Assembly (NCBI GenBank): GCA_007695175.1
Contig: REEH01000133.1
Span: 1 to 64,000, forward strand
Source: Spirochaetaceae bacterium
GTDB taxonomy: Bacteria; Spirochaetota; Spirochaetia; DSM-27196; Alkalispirochaetaceae
Reading direction: 5' to 3'
Length of the DNA stretch: 64,000 nucleotides
Shown here: positions 46,346 through 56,717 of the stretch, in pieces
Position numbering within the stretch: the first letter of the stretch is position 1
How the letters are laid out: each line of letters opens with the position of its first letter
Made by a program: the position numbers and the translations under genes
The notes under the pieces: model-generated
Seen by the model: the letters and a program-made list of their open reading frames with translations, nothing else
Told to the model about the DNA's origin: nothing
Database searches by the model: none

Positions 46346-46915
46346 ATGACGGGGACGGAGGTCGAGATCAAGGCGGTTGTGCTCCATCCGCGGGAACTTG
46401 CCCTCCGCCTCCGCCGGCTGGGCACGTTTATCCGTCCCTTCACCAAGGTCGACCGGTATTTCGGTTTCGCCCGGGAGCTGCCGGAGACGCGGTTTCGCCT
46501 TCGCCGGGACGGTGAATCATGGATCTGTACGCGGAAAAATAAGATTCTTCGGGATTCGATCGAGGAGAGCCGGGAAGAGGAGTTTTCCGTTTCCGACGGA
46601 GAGCTTTTTGAACAGTTTGTCCGTGAAGCGGGTTTCCAGTTGCTCTTTGAGAAGGAAAAAGTCGGTGAGCGATGGGAGGTGGATGGAACCACGGTGGAGG
46701 TGAGCCGGGTCAACGACCTGGGCACCTACGTGGAGGTGGAACTCATTCTGGACGACGATGCATCCCTCCCGGCGAGGGATGATGCGCGCAATCGCGTTCG
46801 CACGGTTCTTGACCGGCTGGGCGTGCCGGAGTCGGCCGTGGAAGAGCGTACCTACACCCAAATGATCTATGAAAACCTTTCCCGCATCAAAACCAGTCCG
46901 AGCCGTTCTCTTTGA
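46346..46915 (+). CDS. CYTH-domain protein (CyaB / triphosphatase family)
   Basis: This 189-residue protein opens with the signature EVEIKA (ExExK) of CYTH triphosphate-tunnel enzymes, followed by alternating charged strands (RFRLRRDGESWICTRKNK, EEEFSVSDGEL, YVEVELILDD). Members hydrolyse inorganic or organic triphosphates or make cAMP (class IV cyclase). The sequence does not settle which; a triphosphatase is the commoner bacterial role. The last 47 bases overlap the HAD gene, which must start inside it. Confidence 0.85.
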   Translation: MTGTEVEIKAVVLHPRELALRLRRLGTFIRPFTKVDRYFGFARELPETRFRLRRDGESWICTRKNKILRDSIEESREEEFSVSDGELFEQFVREAGFQLLFEKEKVGERWEVDGTTVEVSRVNDLGTYVEVELILDDDASLPARDDARNRVRTVLDRLGVPESAVEERTYTQMIYENLSRIKTSPSRSL

Positions 46916-47522: not shown

Positions 47523-48569
47523 ATGCAGTACCGTGATGCGCTGCAAACGCTCGCCGACCACGTGGTGTTGTCCCTTGCCACGGCTTTCCCCGGTCATCCC
47601 GTGCTGGGTGTTATAAACGGGCGGGCCGGCACCGCCGCGCGACACCACGCGCTGCTTCGCACTGCCGCTTCGCTTCCCCGCCATCCCCGCGTGGAATCCT
47701 GGCCGGAGCAGTCCCGATCCTCCGTTTCCACCGTGTGGACCGATTCCGTGGAGGCGTTGCACGATGTCATGAACAACTGGATCGAACGCTTCGACGGGGA
47801 TCGCGGAAGCAGAAATCATACGCCCATCATCGCCAGTTTCGGTGGCGACGGTACGCATAACCAGGTTCTGCGCGCCGTTCCGGCGGGTCGGGATGGTGGC
47901 GTGCGGGACGTCTGGTTCTTTCGGGTCCCCCTGGGCAGCGGTAACGATGCCGTAGGAATCTCCTCCCTGCCGGAGGTGCTGGGTTCCATATCCTCCCGTC
48001 TCGTCCCGGTGTGGATTCCGGAAGTGGAGGTGCAGAGTCCGCGACGAACCCTGAGGGCTTTCAATATCGCCTCCGTGGGCATCGATGCTTTTGTTACAAT
48101 GATGCACCATCGCCTGAGAGTCGCTCTTCCCGGTAATACGTACCGGATTATCGCGAATCTGGCTCTCCTGATCTACGAGCGTCTGGTAAAGCTCGGTCCC
48201 ATTTCGGTCGTGACGGACCAGGAGGATCTGGGGACCCGGGAACGCGTCCTGATAGCCTTCGGGGTACACGGTCATCTCACCTATGGAGATCATATCAGAA
48301 TCCTTCCGACGGAGGAGAATCTCTGCCTTTTCGACCGCGTTTCACTGTGGGGAAAAATCCGGATGAAGCGCCTGCTCATGGAGGGCAACCATGTGCATGA
48401 AGCGATTACGACGATGCGCAGAGCCGGCGAGATGCGCCTGAGCTACGAAGGCAGACTCCCGGTACAGGTGGACGGAGAAGCGGAGTGGCTTGAAGCGGAG
48501 GATTTTCCCCTGGTGATGCGCACCCGGGAACGATCCCGGCTTGTGCTGCAGGAGCCCGCACCCCCTTGA
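47523..48569 (+). CDS. Diacylglycerol-kinase catalytic-domain protein (YegS/DgkB-like)
   Basis: This lipid-kinase-like protein (348 residues) has the nucleotide loop ASFGGDGTHNQVLRAV, PLGSGNDAVG and a C-terminal PVQVDGEAEWLEAEDFPLV block, all standard in the DAGK-catalytic family that includes YegS and DgkB. Its likely role is phosphorylation of diacylglycerol or another lipid at the membrane; a sphingosine-kinase-like activity cannot be excluded. It sits in a gene string with gpmA, CYTH and HAD genes that have at most ten bases between them. Confidence 0.82.
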   Translation: MQYRDALQTLADHVVLSLATAFPGHPVLGVINGRAGTAARHHALLRTAASLPRHPRVESWPEQSRSSVSTVWTDSVEALHDVMNNWIERFDGDRGSRNHTPIIASFGGDGTHNQVLRAVPAGRDGGVRDVWFFRVPLGSGNDAVGISSLPEVLGSISSRLVPVWIPEVEVQSPRRTLRAFNIASVGIDAFVTMMHHRLRVALPGNTYRIIANLALLIYERLVKLGPISVVTDQEDLGTRERVLIAFGVHGHLTYGDHIRILPTEENLCLFDRVSLWGKIRMKRLLMEGNHVHEAITTMRRAGEMRLSYEGRLPVQVDGEAEWLEAEDFPLVMRTRERSRLVLQEPAPP

Positions 48570-48600
48570 CCGGGATCGAGAAATACAGCACTCATGGAAC

Positions 48601-50634
48601 ATGCGAGAAAAGCAAACCCCGAATAAGAATAGTCGCAACGACGCGAACTCTCCCGGACGTTCCCTGACGGTGAGAGGAACCCTCTCGACCACCGCCCGGG
48701 GTTTCGGATTTGTTCATCCCGAGTCCGGACCGGATGTCCTGATACCCTTTGATCACCTGGGTGTCGCCGCTTCAGGCGATACCGTCCGGGTCGAGCTCTT
48801 TGCCGAGACCCAGGCGGACAAGCCGGCGGGGAAGATCGTGGAGGTGCTGAAGCGCAACGATGCCCCCCTGGTGGGACGCATCCGACGTCGCCGGGATGAA
48901 GTCCGGGTGTATCCGGAGGATCAGCGTGTTTCCCGGGCCCTGGTTCTCGACGGCGGGAGCGTGAAACGATTCGAGAAAGGTCTCCCCGGGGGAGCTCTCC
49001 GGGACGGAGACGTGGTGCGCGCTCGCCTCGTGGAGTGGCGTGATCCGGGAAAGCATCCCCGGGGGGAGTTGCTGGAACTGGTCGGACGGGCCGGAGAGCC
49101 AGGCCTGGAGTTGCAGATCATAGCGATTGCCCGTGGTTTTTCCCTGACCTTTCCTCCCGGCCTGGAAGAGGCCGCCCGGGAGGTGCGTATGCCGCCACCG
49201 CGCAAGGTGTTGCGGGGCACGTCCCGGCGGGATCTGCGGAATCTTACCTGCTTTACGATAGATCCCGCTACGGCCAGAGACTATGATGACGCACTCTCCA
49301 TCCGGCAACGGGATGATGGCCTTTTTGAGCTGGGCGTTCACATAGCGGACGTTAGCCACTTCGTGCCCGAGTCGAGTCCGCTGGACCGGGAGGCACGGTC
49401 CCGGGCAACGTCGGTCTACCTGGTAAACGAGGTGCTCCCCATGCTCCCGGAGCATCTTTCCAACGGCTTGTGCAGCCTCGTACCCGGCACGCCTCGTCTG
49501 GCTTTCTCCGTTCTGATCGTACTGGACAGTACCGGATCGGTCCACGACCTGGAAATACGGGAGAGCCTCATTCAGAGCACTCGCAGGTTTACCTACGAGG
49601 AAGTGGAGGAAATACTTTCCGGCGAGATCGATCCGCTCGCACGGGAGCTGCACCTGCTGCACCTGATTGCACAGATGCTCGGTCGCCGTCGCCGGGAAAA
49701 CGGAAGCGTGGATATGGATCTCCCCGCCGCTACCATCTCCCTCGACGAGGAGGGCGTTCCCGTCTCCATCAGGCCGGTGGAACGGCTGAATGCCAACCGC
49801 CTGGTGGAGGAATGCATGCTTCTGGCGAACCAGCAGGTAGCCGCGTTCATCGCCGGCGGTGCCGGTGGATCCGGCGGTGCCGCCGGCGGGGCGATTCCCT
49901 TCGTGTACCGCGTCCACCCGCAGCCGAAACCGTCCGACGTTGCCCAGCTGCTGGAACTGCTGCAGCATCTGGGTATCCGGTACCGGATCGATGAGAACGT
50001 GCAGCCCGAAGACTATCGGAATATACTGGCTCTGATCGAAAACCTGGAGTTCAAGGATCTTGTTGAGAAGCTTGCACTGAAATCACTGCCCAAGGCGGTG
50101 TACAGCACGGCCAATACGGGGCACTTCGGGCTTGCTTTTGAGGCCTACACGCATTTTACCTCCCCGATCCGGCGGTATCCCGACCTTGTGGTGCACCGTA
50201 TTCTGAAACGCTGCATTGCGCGGAACGACGCGGGGAAGGAATCACGGACGCTCATGGAGGAACTGGAGGAAGTCTGCATCCACGCTTCGGAGCGGGAGCG
50301 CTCAGCCACGGAAGCGGAGCGGGAATATACGCGCCTGAAGAGCCTGGAGTATCTCTCGGAGAAGATCGGCCGCACCTACGAGGGGGTGATTTCCGGTGTC
50401 GCCGCGTTCGGGGTCTTCGTACAGTTGCACCGGTATCTCGTGGAGGGACTCGTCCACGTCTCGAAGCTCGGCAAGGATCGCTTCCAGTTGAACCGCGACG
50501 GGTATCAGCTGGTAGGTACCGAGACGGGAACGGCCTATACCCTGGGGGACAGGGTGCGGGTACGGCTGAAATCCGTCAACCTGGCGGAACGGAAGGCGGA
50601 TCTTGACCTTGTACCCTTCTCGGAAGGTGAGTAG
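48601..50634 (+). CDS. rnr: Exoribonuclease R (RNB family)
   Basis: This 3'-5' processive exoribonuclease degrades structured RNA. The cold-shock domain (GTLSTTARGFGFVHPE), the RNB domain with catalytic aspartates in TIDPATARDYDDALSI, HIADVSHFV, AYTHFTSPIRRYPDLVVHR and a C-terminal S1 domain (YEGVISGVAAFGVFVQL) are in the normal order. It has 677 residues from ATG 48601; no Shine-Dalgarno or promoter is clear there. A Gly/Ala-rich insertion, AGGAGGSGGAAGGA, lies at residues 418-431 before PFVYRVH. Confidence 0.95.
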   Translation: MREKQTPNKNSRNDANSPGRSLTVRGTLSTTARGFGFVHPESGPDVLIPFDHLGVAASGDTVRVELFAETQADKPAGKIVEVLKRNDAPLVGRIRRRRDEVRVYPEDQRVSRALVLDGGSVKRFEKGLPGGALRDGDVVRARLVEWRDPGKHPRGELLELVGRAGEPGLELQIIAIARGFSLTFPPGLEEAAREVRMPPPRKVLRGTSRRDLRNLTCFTIDPATARDYDDALSIRQRDDGLFELGVHIADVSHFVPESSPLDREARSRATSVYLVNEVLPMLPEHLSNGLCSLVPGTPRLAFSVLIVLDSTGSVHDLEIRESLIQSTRRFTYEEVEEILSGEIDPLARELHLLHLIAQMLGRRRRENGSVDMDLPAATISLDEEGVPVSIRPVERLNANRLVEECMLLANQQVAAFIAGGAGGSGGAAGGAIPFVYRVHPQPKPSDVAQLLELLQHLGIRYRIDENVQPEDYRNILALIENLEFKDLVEKLALKSLPKAVYSTANTGHFGLAFEAYTHFTSPIRRYPDLVVHRILKRCIARNDAGKESRTLMEELEEVCIHASERERSATEAEREYTRLKSLEYLSEKIGRTYEGVISGVAAFGVFVQLHRYLVEGLVHVSKLGKDRFQLNRDGYQLVGTETGTAYTLGDRVRVRLKSVNLAERKADLDLVPFSEGE

Positions 50635-50644
50635 AGTAGATACC

Positions 50645-52159
50645 GTGGAAACGACGGAGAATGTCAGGGATTTTGACATACTGGCAATGTGCAAGTGCGG
50701 GAATCTCGCGCGCCTTTGCCGGTACGTCCTGGAGTGCACGGAGAGTGGAGAACCGATAGCGCGGAATCCCCTGAGTGTGTTTGTACAGGAGACGCGGCGC
50801 AGTGAGGAGTTTCTGGACGCGTACGGCGCCAAGCACAACACGTACTGGGGGCCGTTCCGGGCGATCATTGCGGCGGGCAAGTTTGCGTCCGACGTCCTCT
50901 ATAAGGCTCTGCACCTCAAGTACGCCGCGCCCTTCTACCATCTTTATCCGGTGGAGGGAGACTTTATCGGGGCTACGGACGAAGCGGTCAGGGCATTGAC
51001 GGCCGTCCTCGCGGATGTATCCAGGGAGTTCCTCTCCGTCGCCGCGGAGATGGAGCTTGATCTGCCCTCGGGAATCTACAACGACTACTGTCCGGAGAAC
51101 GAGTTGCCCCGATTCTTCCTCCCCTGGGACACCGGTACGCGCAGGAACCCGGAAGCGGGCCGTACCGTCGTGAACATAGCGACAGCGTTCCTCAACCAGC
51201 TGGAATCGAGCGATATCATCGGCACCTATCGGGTAGCGCGGGAGCGCCCGCTCCGGGACTGCGTGCCGGACCTTTTCTGTGAACGGCAACTGCGACGCTA
51301 CGAAAACGAGTTTCACAACCTGCAGGCGATGTACGACACGGCCCTCACTGGAACGGACACGGAAAGCGCCGACCGGGATCTGCCTTTTCTCCGGGGCCAT
51401 ATCACGGTCGTTTTCCACCTGCTCGAGATTGCGACGGCGGTCGGTCACTACCAGGAACGGCACGTCCGGTCCTGCCAGGAGGAAAAGGGTTTGCCCCTGC
51501 GATTCCTCTCGGAGGAGCGGGCCCGTACGCTTCTGCTGGACTACAGCATGGCCTATGTGGTGCGTTACCTGGAAAAGGCGCGCGACCTGTGCCGCTCGCT
51601 CCTGCAGAAATATGCGGAAAACGCTGAAATCTCAGTCCCCGCCCCGGTATACCGCGGTTTTCACGTCCGCCCCTCGTCGCTGGTGGCAAAGATCGTCCGC
51701 CATTACGGTACGACCGTGACCATGAGCCTGGACGATGATACGTGCGACGCTTCCTCTGCCATGGACATAATCCGCTTCAATGAAAAGATCTATGCCATCA
51801 AGCGCCGGAGGATAGCACAGGAGGTGGCGCGCACCACCGACCGTATTGGCGGGGAGGAACTCATGCCGGTCTTCCTATCGCTTCTGGAGGAACGGAAGAT
51901 CGTCCTCTATTCCGGCGGCCTGCAGCTTGAGGATTTTCCCCGTGTTCCGGGAGAAACGCTCGCGGAGTATGCCAACCGCGGCCTGGCGCGTCTCCTCGCG
52001 ACGGGAGCCATCGATATCCGTTCCGATATCGAAATACGGCTTCACGGAGATATCCGGGTACTGGAGGATATACGAATCCTCGCGATGCACGGGTACGGTG
52101 AGGACAGCATGGGAAATAACGTGACCCTCCCGGTGGAGCTGAGCTACCTGCGCCGTTAA
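50645..52159 (+). CDS. Protein of unknown function with an internal HPr-like domain
   Basis: This about 504-residue cytosolic protein has no family I recognise in its first 330 residues, which are helical and acidic (YNDYCPENELPRFFLPWDTG, CERQLRRYENEFHNLQAMYD). Around residues 332-420 it contains an HPr-like segment: GFHVRPSSLVAKIVRHYG with His340 at the phosphorylation position, then CDASSAMDIIRFN, the counterpart of the HPr regulatory-Ser region. The last 80 residues are again unassigned. GTG 50645 is tentative; GTG 50627 is possible. It follows rnr closely and overlaps the convergent sugar dehydrogenase gene by four bases. Confidence 0.6.
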   Translation: METTENVRDFDILAMCKCGNLARLCRYVLECTESGEPIARNPLSVFVQETRRSEEFLDAYGAKHNTYWGPFRAIIAAGKFASDVLYKALHLKYAAPFYHLYPVEGDFIGATDEAVRALTAVLADVSREFLSVAAEMELDLPSGIYNDYCPENELPRFFLPWDTGTRRNPEAGRTVVNIATAFLNQLESSDIIGTYRVARERPLRDCVPDLFCERQLRRYENEFHNLQAMYDTALTGTDTESADRDLPFLRGHITVVFHLLEIATAVGHYQERHVRSCQEEKGLPLRFLSEERARTLLLDYSMAYVVRYLEKARDLCRSLLQKYAENAEISVPAPVYRGFHVRPSSLVAKIVRHYGTTVTMSLDDDTCDASSAMDIIRFNEKIYAIKRRRIAQEVARTTDRIGGEELMPVFLSLLEERKIVLYSGGLQLEDFPRVPGETLAEYANRGLARLLATGAIDIRSDIEIRLHGDIRVLEDIRILAMHGYGEDSMGNNVTLPVELSYLRR

Positions 52160-53295
52160 TCCGGGCGAATCCTGAAGATCCCTGCGTCTCTCTCGTCGTT
52201 GATTACGTAAAGGTATCCATCGGAGCCAACCGTAACGTCCCTGATTCGCCCTATCGTGCCATCCAGCAGCACCTCCTGGTGAACGACCTGATCCTCCTCT
52301 ATCACGAGACGCCGCAGGTGTCGTGCCACGAGAGATGCGACAAAGAGGTTTCCCTCCCATTCCGGAAAGGCGTCACCGAAGTAGAAAGCGATTCCCGAGG
52401 GGGCTATCGCGGGACTCCAGTGTTCCCGGGGCTGCTCCAATCCCGGCGCGTGGGTGCCTTCCCCGATGGGTCGGCCGGTCCGGTAGTCCACTCCGTGGCT
52501 GATGCGGGGCCAGCCGTAGTTCAGACCGGGTTCAATTATGTTCAGTTCGTCGCCACCTCGCGGACCGTGCTCGCTCTGCCAGACCGTGCCCGTTTCCGGA
52601 TGAACGGTCATTCCCTGGGAGTTCCGGTTGCCGATCGTGTACAGCTCCGGCCGGTATCCGTCGCGGTCCAGAAAGGGATTATCCTCCGGCACCGTACCAT
52701 CAATATTGAGCCTGAGCGTCGACCCTGCGTGGTCCATTGTATCCTGAGCGGAATCGGGCCAACCCCGGTCTCCAATCGTCAGGAGCAGTGTTTCGTCCGG
52801 AAGAAATGCCAGCCGGGACCCGAAGTGCTGTCCTCGCCCCGTCTTGGGTTCCAGGGAAAATATCGTCTCCACCTCACGCAGAGAATTGCCCTGGAGGCGC
52901 GCCCTGGCCACGGCGGTACCGGCGCCGCCGTTACCCGGCTCCGAGTAGGTGATAAAAATGAGGCCGTTCCGGGAGAACCGGGGATGCGCAATCACATCGA
53001 GCAGCCCCCCCTGGCCCATAGGGGCGACCCCGGGAAGCCCATCTACCGGCGTCAGGGTGGAACCGTCAAAGGTATGCATGCGCCCCGGTCGCTCAGTGAC
53101 GAGCATCCTTCCGTCGGGCAGCGGCGTGAGAGCCCAGGGGTTCTCCAGGCCCCGGGCCACCTGCTCGATCCGCAGCGTTCCCGCTTCGTGCGCCTCGGAG
53201 CGACTCAGCATGCGTCCCTGGGCCGATACATCCGGTGCGGGGACAAACAATCCCGGCAGAACGGCAGCCATTATCATAATTACTGTTTTAGTCAT
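52156..53295 (-). CDS. PQQ-dependent aldose sugar dehydrogenase (GSDH family)
   Basis: This periplasmic six-bladed beta-propeller oxidises aldoses. The signal peptide (KTVIMIMAAVLPGLFVPA, cut after VSAQ) is followed by the family hallmark LENPWALTPLPDGRMLVTERPGRM, GQGGLLDVIAHPRFSRNGLIFI, GRGQHFGSRLAF, RNSQGMTVHP, WQSEHGPRGGDELN and GYLYVINDE. 379 residues. GGGAGGC precedes ATG 53295; the frame beyond to 53391 is promoter region. No pqq biosynthesis genes are in the window, so the cofactor would be scavenged or made elsewhere. Confidence 0.92.
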   Translation of the reverse strand: MTKTVIMIMAAVLPGLFVPAPDVSAQGRMLSRSEAHEAGTLRIEQVARGLENPWALTPLPDGRMLVTERPGRMHTFDGSTLTPVDGLPGVAPMGQGGLLDVIAHPRFSRNGLIFITYSEPGNGGAGTAVARARLQGNSLREVETIFSLEPKTGRGQHFGSRLAFLPDETLLLTIGDRGWPDSAQDTMDHAGSTLRLNIDGTVPEDNPFLDRDGYRPELYTIGNRNSQGMTVHPETGTVWQSEHGPRGGDELNIIEPGLNYGWPRISHGVDYRTGRPIGEGTHAPGLEQPREHWSPAIAPSGIAFYFGDAFPEWEGNLFVASLVARHLRRLVIEEDQVVHQEVLLDGTIGRIRDVTVGSDGYLYVINDERDAGIFRIRPD

Positions 53296-53312
53296 GTAGC
53301 CTCCCGGACAAA

Positions 53313-53341
53313 AAGGTAGGGAAATGGACCCGGAAAGACAA
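53313..53341 (-). promoter_or_regulatory. Promoter of the sugar dehydrogenase gene
   Basis: On the minus strand TTGTCT (53341-53336), exactly 17 bases and TACCTT (53318-53313) give a short leader that carries GGGAGGC before ATG 53295. Confidence 0.45.
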
Positions 53342-53538
53342 GGATGTCTCGGAGATCGGGGCGGAACCGTGCAATAATCGGAGGGTATCAAGAAGGTTGC
53401 CGTGTCCAGACGTACCCGAGGTGCCGATCCTCTTTCTCTTCCATTGCCGCGGCACCACGCCGGTTGCCGGTTCCGGCCGTTCTAGATGGTATTCCGGGTA
53501 CTGCCGTGGTCCTGATCCTGCAGCGATTGTTCCGATCC

Positions 53539-55491
53539 ATGTACAGGCATGTCCTTTCTCCCACGATAGGAAAGCGAATCCTGGGGCCAATTCTCGGGGT
53601 GGTGCTCCTGGCTTTGGCCTTGAACACCTTCTACGCGTACCGGAGCCAGCATGCTATCACGCTGGAAACGATGGAGACCGTTACCCGAAGCAACCTGGGT
53701 GAAATGATACGACAGATCCGGGAAGCCCAGGATGCGGTGGATCTGCTGACGGAATCGCTGAATACCAACTATCTGCGCATTGCCCGCCTTCTGGCGGCGC
53801 ACATCGCGCGACATCCTCCTGCCCTGGAGCCGGAAGCGATGATCGCCCTGGCGGAACAGACGGGCATACCGGAGATACACGTATCCGATTCGGCAGGTAT
53901 TCTGGTAACGGGAAATGTCCCCGACTTTTTCGGGTATTCCTTTGACTCGGAGGCCCAGTCCGCGGCCTTCATGCCTGCTATCACCGATCCCCGGTTTTCC
54001 CTGGCCCAGGAACCGACTCCCCGCGGAGTGGATGCGGAGCTGTTTCAGTATATCGGAGTCGCCAGAGTGGACGAGCCGGGCATCGTCCAGATCGGCCTAC
54101 GGCCCCTGGAGCTGGAGAAGCTCATCGCCTCGACGCAGCCCGGCCGGTTGGCCGCGGGAAGTCGGTTCGGACGGGAGGGGTTCTTTCTCGTCACCGACGG
54201 GGAGGGGCTCATCCTCCACCACCCGGAGGATGAGCTGAACGGAGCAAATCTGGCGGATCTCGCCTGGGCTCGGCCCCTTCTCGAAGAGGAGCAGGGGAGC
54301 GCGCTACTCTCGATTGCGGGGCGTGACATTTTTGCCGCCTTTCGGAAGATTGAGGGATATCGCGTCGTTGCCATGATTCCCGCCGGGGAGTTCACCGGCC
54401 CCCTGGGGCGAATGCGGATAACCCTGGCGGGTCTCCTCCTGATAGCTCTGTCCCTCTCGGCCGCCGCGGTCTATACGGTGGTGCGTCGGAGCATTCTCAC
54501 CCCGGTGGAGCGGCTGAACGCGAGTCTGACCCGGATGGCTGAGGGCGATCTGGATTGCCGGCTGGAAATCACCAGCCAGGATGAGTTCGGCGTGATTGGG
54601 GAGCACTTCAACGCGGTCGTGAGCAGCCTGGAATCGTTCACGGAGAAAATCCGGAATATGCTTGCCGTTCTGACCGAGTCCATCACTGCTCTCGCCACCT
54701 ACTCGCTCCAGACTTCAGCCACCTCATCGGAACAGTCCTCGGCCGTTGCGGAGATCATGAGTACCATGGAGGATGTGAACACCCTCTCCAAGGCGATCGA
54801 GAAGCGCATTCTGGAGGCGTCGGAGACTGCCACGGGGACGCAGCACACGGTCAACGATGGATTCGCCAGGGTGAAGGAGAACCCTTCAAAGATCGAGGAG
54901 ATCCACAACGCCAACACCACGACGATACAGGGTATCACCTTCCTGGGCGAAAAGATCAAGAACATCGGTGATATCGTAAACGTGATCAACGCTATCGCCG
55001 ACCAGACCAAGATCATCGCGTTCAACGCGGAACTGGAAGCGTCCTCCTCCGGAGAGGGAGGGGAGAACTTCCAGATCGTGGCCACGGAGATTCGGCGCCT
55101 GGCTGATTCCACCGTGAAGGCCACCAGAGATATACGGGAGCGGATCACCGAGATCCAGGCCTCCTCGGACAAGCTGATCGTAGCCTCCCGGGAGGGTACC
55201 GCACGGATACGGGAAGGCCGGGTACTGACGGGAGAGATTCAGGAGCTCTTCCAGGATATCCTGGCCACGGCAGAGACTTCAGGTGAATCGACGCGGCAGA
55301 TTGCGGGCTCCGTAAACAAACAGGTTTCCACCTTTGAACAGGTGCTCCTGGCGATCCAACAGATTTCCGCCGGGGTCAACAACATCACGGCGGCCGCGGA
55401 CAATACAGCAGAAACCGCCGGATCCCTGGATGGGGTTTCCGACAATTTGAAGCAGATTCTCAGTATGTACGACAACGGCTCATCGGAGTAA
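53539..55491 (+). CDS. Methyl-accepting chemotaxis-type receptor with divergent signalling tip
   Basis: This is a membrane receptor of about 650 residues. TM1 (about 12-34), a periplasmic sensor of about 255 residues (Cache-like, HVSDSAGILVTGNVPDFFGY), TM2 (about 293-317), HAMP (about 318-370) and a cytoplasmic coiled coil follow in order. The hairpin tip reads IADQTKIIAFNAELEASSSG then GENFQIVATEIRRLADS instead of the usual QTNLLALNAAIEAARAGE...GFAVVA, so it is recognisable but altered at CheA/CheW contact positions. ATG 53539 is the first Met before TM1; no good ribosome site is visible. Two small unknown genes follow within 12-13 bases. Confidence 0.85.
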   Translation: MYRHVLSPTIGKRILGPILGVVLLALALNTFYAYRSQHAITLETMETVTRSNLGEMIRQIREAQDAVDLLTESLNTNYLRIARLLAAHIARHPPALEPEAMIALAEQTGIPEIHVSDSAGILVTGNVPDFFGYSFDSEAQSAAFMPAITDPRFSLAQEPTPRGVDAELFQYIGVARVDEPGIVQIGLRPLELEKLIASTQPGRLAAGSRFGREGFFLVTDGEGLILHHPEDELNGANLADLAWARPLLEEEQGSALLSIAGRDIFAAFRKIEGYRVVAMIPAGEFTGPLGRMRITLAGLLLIALSLSAAAVYTVVRRSILTPVERLNASLTRMAEGDLDCRLEITSQDEFGVIGEHFNAVVSSLESFTEKIRNMLAVLTESITALATYSLQTSATSSEQSSAVAEIMSTMEDVNTLSKAIEKRILEASETATGTQHTVNDGFARVKENPSKIEEIHNANTTTIQGITFLGEKIKNIGDIVNVINAIADQTKIIAFNAELEASSSGEGGENFQIVATEIRRLADSTVKATRDIRERITEIQASSDKLIVASREGTARIREGRVLTGEIQELFQDILATAETSGESTRQIAGSVNKQVSTFEQVLLAIQQISAGVNNITAAADNTAETAGSLDGVSDNLKQILSMYDNGSSE

Positions 55492-55742: not shown

Positions 55743-56717
55743 ATGCTGAAAACGATAGGGGAAATGGAGCAGGAACTGCAGGCGGGTAAGGCGTTCTTTA
55801 TTGCCGGGGAGGAGGAGCTGCTCAAGAAGCTCCCTCGCGGAAACTGGATCGGAGGTACGATCCCCTACTTCATGGCCGAGACGGGCGGTGTCGTAACACA
55901 GGAGAAAGTGTTTGCCACGGAGGTCCCCCCGGGAACAGTGGAAACCTCCATATCCTGGTACACGGAGAAATCCCTTCCCCGACTACCTGGTGATTCTCCT
56001 GACAACGGATTTACCTTCGTGATTATTCCCGCCACAAGTGCAACCCATGTCTCCTTCGCCCAGAACGCACCGGAATACGAGGGGAACTTCCTCAAGAATC
56101 TGATTGGCTGGATTTCCGGGGTGCACCTGAATGATCTGGGCAGTAAAGCCCCGAAAGTTTTTAACGGGAAGACGGGAGAGAACTCCGCGCAGGATACGAT
56201 ATCCATGCATTGCACCCTGGAGGAGGGGAGAATTCCCACCATCGGCATCATCAACCTCTTCCGGCAGGGCGATGGAGATACCATAACCTTTGATGAGACG
56301 GGGTTTTCGGTCGGGGAGTGCCGGATCAACGGCGAGCGGGAGAACTTCGCGAAGTACCTCACCCGGATCGAGGCGGATACGCGCTTGCCCCTGGTGGCCA
56401 ACTACAGCGGCGCCATGGTCAACGTGAGTTTTCAGGCCGTGAAGCCCGAGGAGGGAGTAGTGGACCTCTACGCCCCGGTCTTCAGCGGAGTGGAGTACCG
56501 GATAGCGGCTCCCGTCGGTGACTATGTGACGGAGTTTTCCCGATTGCTCCCTTCCGGCCTCGATACGGCCTTTTCCTGTAACTGTATCCTGAACTTTCTC
56601 TACTCGGAACTGGAAGGGAAGGTAACGGCGGGGATGGCGGGACCGGTTACGTTCGGCGAAATCGCATACCAGCTGCTCAATCAGACGCTGGTGTACCTGG
56701 AGATCCGCTCGGCCTGA
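55743..56717 (+). CDS. Unknown protein, possibly FIST-like, in receptor operon
   Basis: This 324-residue soluble protein begins MLKTIGEMEQELQAGKAFFI and has GNWIGGTIPYFMAETGG near residue 35, a central HLNDLGSKAPKVFNGKTGE and a C-terminal SCNCILNFLYSELEG then GPVTFGEIAYQLLNQT. The C-terminal Cys-containing region and final TFGEIAYQ resemble FIST-type sensory proteins, and I recall similar proteins labelled DUF6976, but neither match was tested. AAAGGAG precedes the start. Its fixed position after the receptor and the 75-residue gene points to a shared sensory function. Confidence 0.6.
   Translation: MLKTIGEMEQELQAGKAFFIAGEEELLKKLPRGNWIGGTIPYFMAETGGVVTQEKVFATEVPPGTVETSISWYTEKSLPRLPGDSPDNGFTFVIIPATSATHVSFAQNAPEYEGNFLKNLIGWISGVHLNDLGSKAPKVFNGKTGENSAQDTISMHCTLEEGRIPTIGIINLFRQGDGDTITFDETGFSVGECRINGERENFAKYLTRIEADTRLPLVANYSGAMVNVSFQAVKPEEGVVDLYAPVFSGVEYRIAAPVGDYVTEFSRLLPSGLDTAFSCNCILNFLYSELEGKVTAGMAGPVTFGEIAYQLLNQTLVYLEIRSA

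What the first reader, a model, noticed from the sequence alone, without database searches (positions are those of the whole stretch)
50645..52159. HPr-like domain inside a large protein of unknown function
GFHVRPSSLVAKIV with His340 matches the HPr active-site pattern (G-x-H-x-R-P), followed by a CDASSAMDII segment resembling the region around regulatory Ser46. HPr is normally a free protein of about 85 residues; here it lies between a 330-residue unknown N-terminal region and an 80-residue tail. Spirochaetes often keep HPr and HPr kinase for regulation without sugar transport, so this may be a phosphorylation-controlled switch, close to RNase R.
Basis: partly seen in the sequence, partly recalled or inferred. 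Interest (0 to 1): 0.65.

Follow-up and report, generated by a model that had tools for sequence, protein, structure and literature searches.

The report
Split HPr domain in spirochaete helical protein
A 504-residue protein of a free-living spirochaete carries a complete but interrupted copy of the bacterial phosphate-relay protein HPr, with its active-site histidine kept in all 31 homologues examined, fused to a helical domain of unknown role; this points to an undescribed PTS-linked switch or enzyme.

Summary
The ORF at 50645-52159 encodes a 504-aa protein whose residues 326-487 form an HPr domain. All 18 homologues scanned match the HPr profile, the window's own protein below the curated cut-offs. 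The predicted fold superposes on solved HPr over 80 of 87 residues (Z 9.6, rmsd 2.1 A). The domain is split: beta1-alphaA-beta2-beta3-alphaB, an insertion of about 75 residues, then beta4-alphaC.

His340 (HPr His15), Arg342 and Pro343 are invariant in 31 of 31 homologues. The Ser46 position is not conserved (Ser in 16 of 31), so a conserved HPr-kinase switch is not supported. The family adds an invariant active-site fringe (R337, R377, N379, E380) and a two-bundle helical N-terminal domain with invariant His, Arg and Lys, found only together with this HPr domain.

The family is patchy across Spirochaetota; the RNase R neighbour is conserved only within one genus. The genome also has free HPr, HPr kinase, enzyme I and sugar PTS parts.

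Best reading: a PTS-linked regulatory or enzymatic protein, phosphorylated on His340 by an enzyme I, whose phospho-state acts on the helical domain. Fold and conservation are supported; phosphorylation and its effect are inferred.

The parts
50645..52159 (+). CDS, 504 aa, GTG start, 10 nt after the stop codon of the RNase R gene (48541-50634); an in-frame TTG at 50603 would give 518 aa
   Evidence: full-length homologues of about 500-580 aa open frame
50645..51619 (+). N-terminal domain, residues 1-325: all-helical, two bundles (about 7-139 and 168-325); invariant W68, R72, K79, H224, Q227, D231, H268, R272, H273 among others
   Evidence: model (block pLDDT mostly 75-92, lower near 1-10, 60-70, 140-170 and 270-280); conservation; no Pfam or PDB family
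51620..51796 (+). First part of the HPr domain, residues 326-384: beta1, active-site loop, alphaA, beta2, beta3, alphaB
   Evidence: sequence; fold
51662..51664 (+). His340, equivalent of HPr His15 (phosphoryl acceptor); R342 = Arg17, P343 = Pro18
   Evidence: invariant in 31 of 31 homologues
51755..51757 (+). Ser371, equivalent of HPr Ser46; not conserved in the family
51797..52021 (+). Family-specific insertion, residues about 385-459, between alphaB and beta4: end of a lengthened alphaB, two further helices, short strands
   Evidence: DSSP of the model; exact borders approximate
52022..52105 (+). Second part of the HPr domain, residues about 460-487: beta4 and alphaC, ending in the conserved G-Y-G-E-D
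   Evidence: VIA-align rows spanning model residues 3 to 160-173; weak by sequence alone
52106..52156 (+). C-terminal segment, residues 488-504, with invariant G490, L495, P496, L499, Y501

Best explanation
A PTS-linked regulatory or enzymatic protein. An enzyme I (using PEP), or a free phospho-HPr, transfers a phosphoryl group to His340 of the C-terminal HPr domain. The phospho-state changes how the HPr domain, with its inserted arm and its extra invariant Arg, Asn and Glu around the active site, packs on or feeds the N-terminal two-bundle helical domain. That domain holds conserved His, Arg and Lys, probably a pocket, and carries the output by binding or acting on an anionic metabolite or a partner. 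Supported here: HPr fold (predicted), split architecture, invariant His15/Arg17/Pro18 equivalents, constant coupling of the two domains, presence of enzyme I in the genomes. Inferred: phosphorylation itself, the donor, the pocket, and the regulatory effect.
For: HPr homology by sequence profiles and fold: Z 9.6, rmsd 2.1 A, 80 of 87 residues; the top 35 rows are all HPr, Crh or NPr and the next, unrelated row is Z 4.9. H340, R342 and P343 invariant in 31 of 31. Enzyme I N-domain present in all 41 genomes tested, with and without the family. The N-terminal domain was never found on another protein among 393 genomes. Polar invariants of the N-terminal helices fall on single faces by i+3/i+4 spacing (R217, E220, H224, Q227, D231; R72, K79; H268, R272; residues).
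Against: Positions near His15 differ from free HPr (R at 12, R at 52, N at 54, E at 55), and the insertion sits in the alphaB-beta4 loop, which in known HPr complexes lies beside the docking face (background knowledge), so docking of a standard enzyme I could be altered. The active-site loop is the least confident part of the model (residues 339-341 below pLDDT 50). No conserved operon ties it to PTS genes. Enzyme I also occurs where the family is absent, so co-occurrence is uninformative.
Confidence: 0.5

Rival explanations
1. Repurposed HPr fold: His340 is not a PTS phosphoryl acceptor but a catalytic or ligand-binding residue of an enzyme whose active site is formed between the HPr domain and the helical domain.
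For: The invariant polar set is much larger than HPr needs (R337, R377, N379, E380, K386, R387, D457, D469, E486, D487 plus N-terminal H224, H268, R272, H273). Ser46 is lost in half the family. There is no operon link to PTS genes.
Against: The whole His15-x-Arg17-Pro18 set is invariant, which would be a coincidence if phosphorylation were not the role; Crh, an HPr homologue not phosphorylated there, has lost the His (background knowledge).
Confidence: 0.25
2. HPr-kinase-controlled switch: Ser371 phosphorylated by HPrK/P.
For: HPr kinase is present in the genome, and this protein and its closest congeners have Ser at the Ser46 position.
Against: Ser in only 16 of 31 homologues; Ala, Arg, Val, Leu, Met, Ile or Thr in the rest. 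The HPrK gene lies beside a free canonical HPr with Ser46, a more obvious substrate.
Confidence: 0.08
3. Intramolecular relay like HPr to PRD or EIIA domains: phospho-His340 passes the group to a His of the N-terminal bundles (H224, H258, H268 or H273), which sets the activity of the protein.
For: Several invariant or nearly invariant His in the N-terminal domain and constant fusion of the two domains.
Against: No sequence match to PRD or EIIA domains; no fold match beyond generic helical bundles.
Confidence: 0.15

Closest known systems
HPr / PtsH (Pfam PF00381, TIGR01003)
   Same: Fold, His15-x-Arg17-Pro18, spacing of the first 50 positions
   Different: Interrupted by about 75 residues between alphaB and beta4; fused to a 325-residue helical domain; Arg at 12 and 52, Asn at 54, Glu at 55; Ser46 not kept; below curated profile cut-offs
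Multidomain PTS proteins with HPr domains (FPr/FruB, DhaM-type; PMC2405797)
   Same: HPr domain within a larger chain, in some at the C-terminal end
   Different: Those are joined to EIIA or enzyme I domains; here no EIIA, enzyme I or PRD domain is detected
Crh and NPr (regulatory HPr paralogues)
   Same: HPr fold used for regulation rather than transport; both appear among the structural matches
   Different: Both are free single-domain proteins; Crh lacks the active His (background knowledge), which is invariant here

Membership tests
HPr domain family (PF00381 / TIGR01003) | Open-faced beta-sandwich beta1-alphaA-beta2-beta3-alphaB-beta4-alphaC | tested here: met
   Predicted model, mean pLDDT 80.8; Z 9.6, rmsd 2.1 A, 80 of 87 residues of 3le1, with an insertion between alphaB and beta4
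HPr domain family (PF00381 / TIGR01003) | Active-site His15 with Arg17 and Pro18 | tested here: met
   H340, R342, P343 in 31 of 31
HPr domain family (PF00381 / TIGR01003) | Score above the curated cut-off of the profile | tested here: not met
   27.7 against 47.9 bits (NCBIfam), 18.3 against 23 (Pfam). A curation threshold rather than a biological feature: of three insertion-free constructs of homologues two pass the Pfam cut-off (24.9 and 23.1) and one does not (20.9)
HPr domain family (PF00381 / TIGR01003) | Phosphorylation on His by enzyme I | not testable with these tools
   Needs a biochemical assay
HPrK/P-regulated HPr | Conserved regulatory Ser46 | tested here: not met
   Ser in 16 of 31 homologues; the window's own protein has Ser371
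HPrK/P-regulated HPr | HPr kinase in the same genome | tested here: met
   C233:56-424, E 4.3e-41, beside a free HPr at C233:508-750
Multidomain PTS phosphoryl-transfer proteins | HPr fused to EIIA and/or enzyme I domains | tested here: not met
   No such Pfam match in any of 18 members at E up to 10
CHAD (helical polyphosphate-binding, PF05235) | CHAD profile or fold in the N-terminal domain | tested here: inconclusive
   Z 8.4 to 6qva for one bundle, within the noise of helical bundles; no profile match in this protein or genome

The most novel reading that the evidence does not exclude
A previously undescribed class of PTS output protein in Spirochaetota: an HPr domain split by an inserted arm and fused to a novel His/Arg-rich helical domain, in which PEP-derived phosphate on the HPr His gates or drives chemistry in the helical domain (a one-protein phosphorelay or enzyme).
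Probability: 0.3. Interest if true: 0.75.

Novelty: new variant of a known kind. Interest (0 to 1): 0.5.

Why it matters
HPr is one of the best-studied bacterial phosphocarriers. An HPr domain that tolerates a 75-residue insertion beside its docking face, keeps its active His, does not conserve the Ser switch and is always joined to an unknown helical domain would show a new way of coupling PEP/PTS state to another function. It also gives a sharp, cheap test (enzyme I labelling of one purified protein) in a phylum whose PTS regulation is little studied.

Tried and rejected
Conserved operon: 26 neighbourhoods compared. RNase R lies directly upstream only in the window and three congeners, and no other gene is shared widely; the commonest neighbour cluster, 6 loci, had an ABC-transporter-type ATPase as its example protein.

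CHAD-like N-terminal domain: suggested by a VIA-align row, but the score is in the helical-bundle noise and no CHAD profile occurs in the genome.

PRD, EIIA or enzyme I domain in the N-terminal part: no profile match.

N-terminal domain on other proteins: none in 393 genomes.

Plasmid-borne copies: none.

Fold of the N-terminal domain: only designed bundles and other generic helical matches, none with E below 0.001; a relative is not excluded, since it was not folded and searched alone.

beta4-alphaC by sequence alone: the tail profile gave no match to HPr, and cutting out the insertion extended the alignment to 81 columns but did not raise the raw score; the case rests on the predicted fold.

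Full report
OBSERVATION. Pfam PTS-HPr matches residues 337-377 with 18.3 bits (cut-off 23, E = 0.0024) and NCBIfam TIGR01003 with 27.7 bits (cut-off 47.9, E = 2e-6). Single-protein annotation by curated cut-offs would therefore miss it. Across 18 homologues every member matches TIGR01003, best E = 1.1e-7. Profile-profile alignment of the C-terminal domain with 12 free spirochaete HPrs gives 97.3% probability and E = 2.5e-11 over 49 columns; a reversed alignment gives 0.2%. A phylum search with the whole-protein profile picks up free HPrs of 93-98 aa at the same columns.

FOLD AND ARCHITECTURE. AlphaFold2 on the whole protein (three sequences; mean pLDDT 70.8) gives an all-helical region 7-324, then beta-alpha-beta-beta-alpha, extra helices, and a final beta-alpha. 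The C-terminal part alone (residues 324-504) reaches pLDDT 80.8 and pTM 0.73. Foldseek's top 34 matches in the PDB are HPr, Crh or close kin, but with E-values of 0.01 or weaker because it mostly aligns only about 50 residues. VIA-align 2, which can span the gap, superposes 80 of 87 residues of HPr 3le1 at Z 9.6 and rmsd 2.1 A, using model residues 3 to 173. Thirty-five HPr/Crh/NPr rows precede the first unrelated one at Z 4.9. The HPr domain is thus complete but interrupted between alphaB and beta4 by about 75 residues (roughly 385-459). By sequence alone the second half is not recognisable, so this step rests on the predicted fold. The active-site loop itself is poorly modelled (pLDDT under 50 at 339-341).

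CONSERVATION. In 31 homologues R337, G338, F339, H340, V341, R342, P343 and S344 are invariant, as are R377, N379 and E380 (HPr positions 52, 54, 55), K386, R387, D457, G468, D469, Y484, E486 and D487. The free HPrs shown do not carry this Arg52-Asn54-Glu55 combination. The active centre is therefore HPr-like with a family-specific polar fringe. In the N-terminal domain W68, R72, K79, H224, Q227, D231, H268, R272 and H273 are invariant. Spacings such as 217-220-224-227-231 (invariant or nearly so) place them on one helix face, suggesting a polar pocket (inference).

DISTRIBUTION. The closest named relatives are Alkalispirochaeta alkalica (66%) and a Spirochaeta MAG (74%). Of 61 genomes searched (the window's own included) 22 match, one of them only in a free HPr-sized ORF (G056), leaving 21 with the family. 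An even draw of 393 genomes of the phylum adds members in several other families; the N-terminal domain is found in 12 of 393. It was never found on another protein; in G092 the two halves lie on separate contig fragments, and in G103 only a 195-aa C-terminal piece near a contig start was seen. The gene tree is mostly congruent within families, but one congener (G004) groups with other genera, and two genomes (G045, G428) have two copies, so transfer or old duplication is likely. No plasmid copy was found.

CONTEXT. RNase R lies directly upstream in the window and three congeners (G002, G005, G006), not elsewhere. No PTS gene was seen as a conserved neighbour. The genome has other HPr domains at four places, three in small open frames of 100-130 aa and one in an 853-aa frame. 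One free HPr lies beside an HPr kinase. It also has five enzyme-I-type N domains, one EIIC of the PF02378 family and 11 EIIA_2 domains. Enzyme I was found in all 41 genomes tested, with or without the family, so it could serve as donor but its presence is no evidence of a link.

MECHANISM. Most likely His340 is phosphorylated through enzyme I (directly or via free HPr), and the phospho-state is read by the N-terminal domain, to which it is always fused. In known HPr complexes the loops before alphaA and after alphaB flank the docking face (background knowledge), so the insertion after alphaB and the invariant R377/N379/E380 should either narrow the choice of partner or let the domain clamp onto its own N-terminal domain. 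Supported: fold, split, invariance, fusion. Inferred: phosphorylation, donor, output. The main rival is an enzyme that has turned the HPr fold and its His to another chemistry; the many invariant polar residues fit that too.

KNOWN OR NEW. Known multidomain HPr proteins join HPr to EIIA or enzyme I domains (PMC2405797). Papers found under the searched terms were judged from titles, abstracts and, for PMC2405797, passages; none of what was read describes an HPr domain with this insertion or this helical partner, but the library lacks most subscription journals. I file it as a member of the HPr fold family and a new variant of multidomain HPr proteins, not as an HPrK-controlled switch.

Noticed in passing
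window 55743-56717 +: A DUF6976 protein (E 1.2e-135) about 250 nt downstream of a large ORF (53344-55491) that reads like a methyl-accepting chemotaxis protein; a pairing that may be worth a neighbourhood survey.
   Followed up: partly
window 52156-53391 -: A glucose/sorbosone dehydrogenase-type protein (PF07995, E 1.2e-126) convergent with the HPr-like gene; the two coding regions overlap by 4 nt at their stop codons.
   Followed up: partly
L051, L052, L058 (genus g138, same phylum): Free HPr proteins with the motif HARPSSxIxE...ADASSxM, which share the DASS signature with the split HPr domain and may be its nearest free relatives.
   Followed up: no
L017/L027 (G045) and L047/L063 (G428): Two copies of the split-HPr protein in one genome; the G428 pair is deeply diverged (separate parts of the tree).
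   Followed up: partly
window 46346-46915 +: CYTH-domain protein (E 7e-12) in the same gene neighbourhood; no CHAD partner in the genome.
   Followed up: partly
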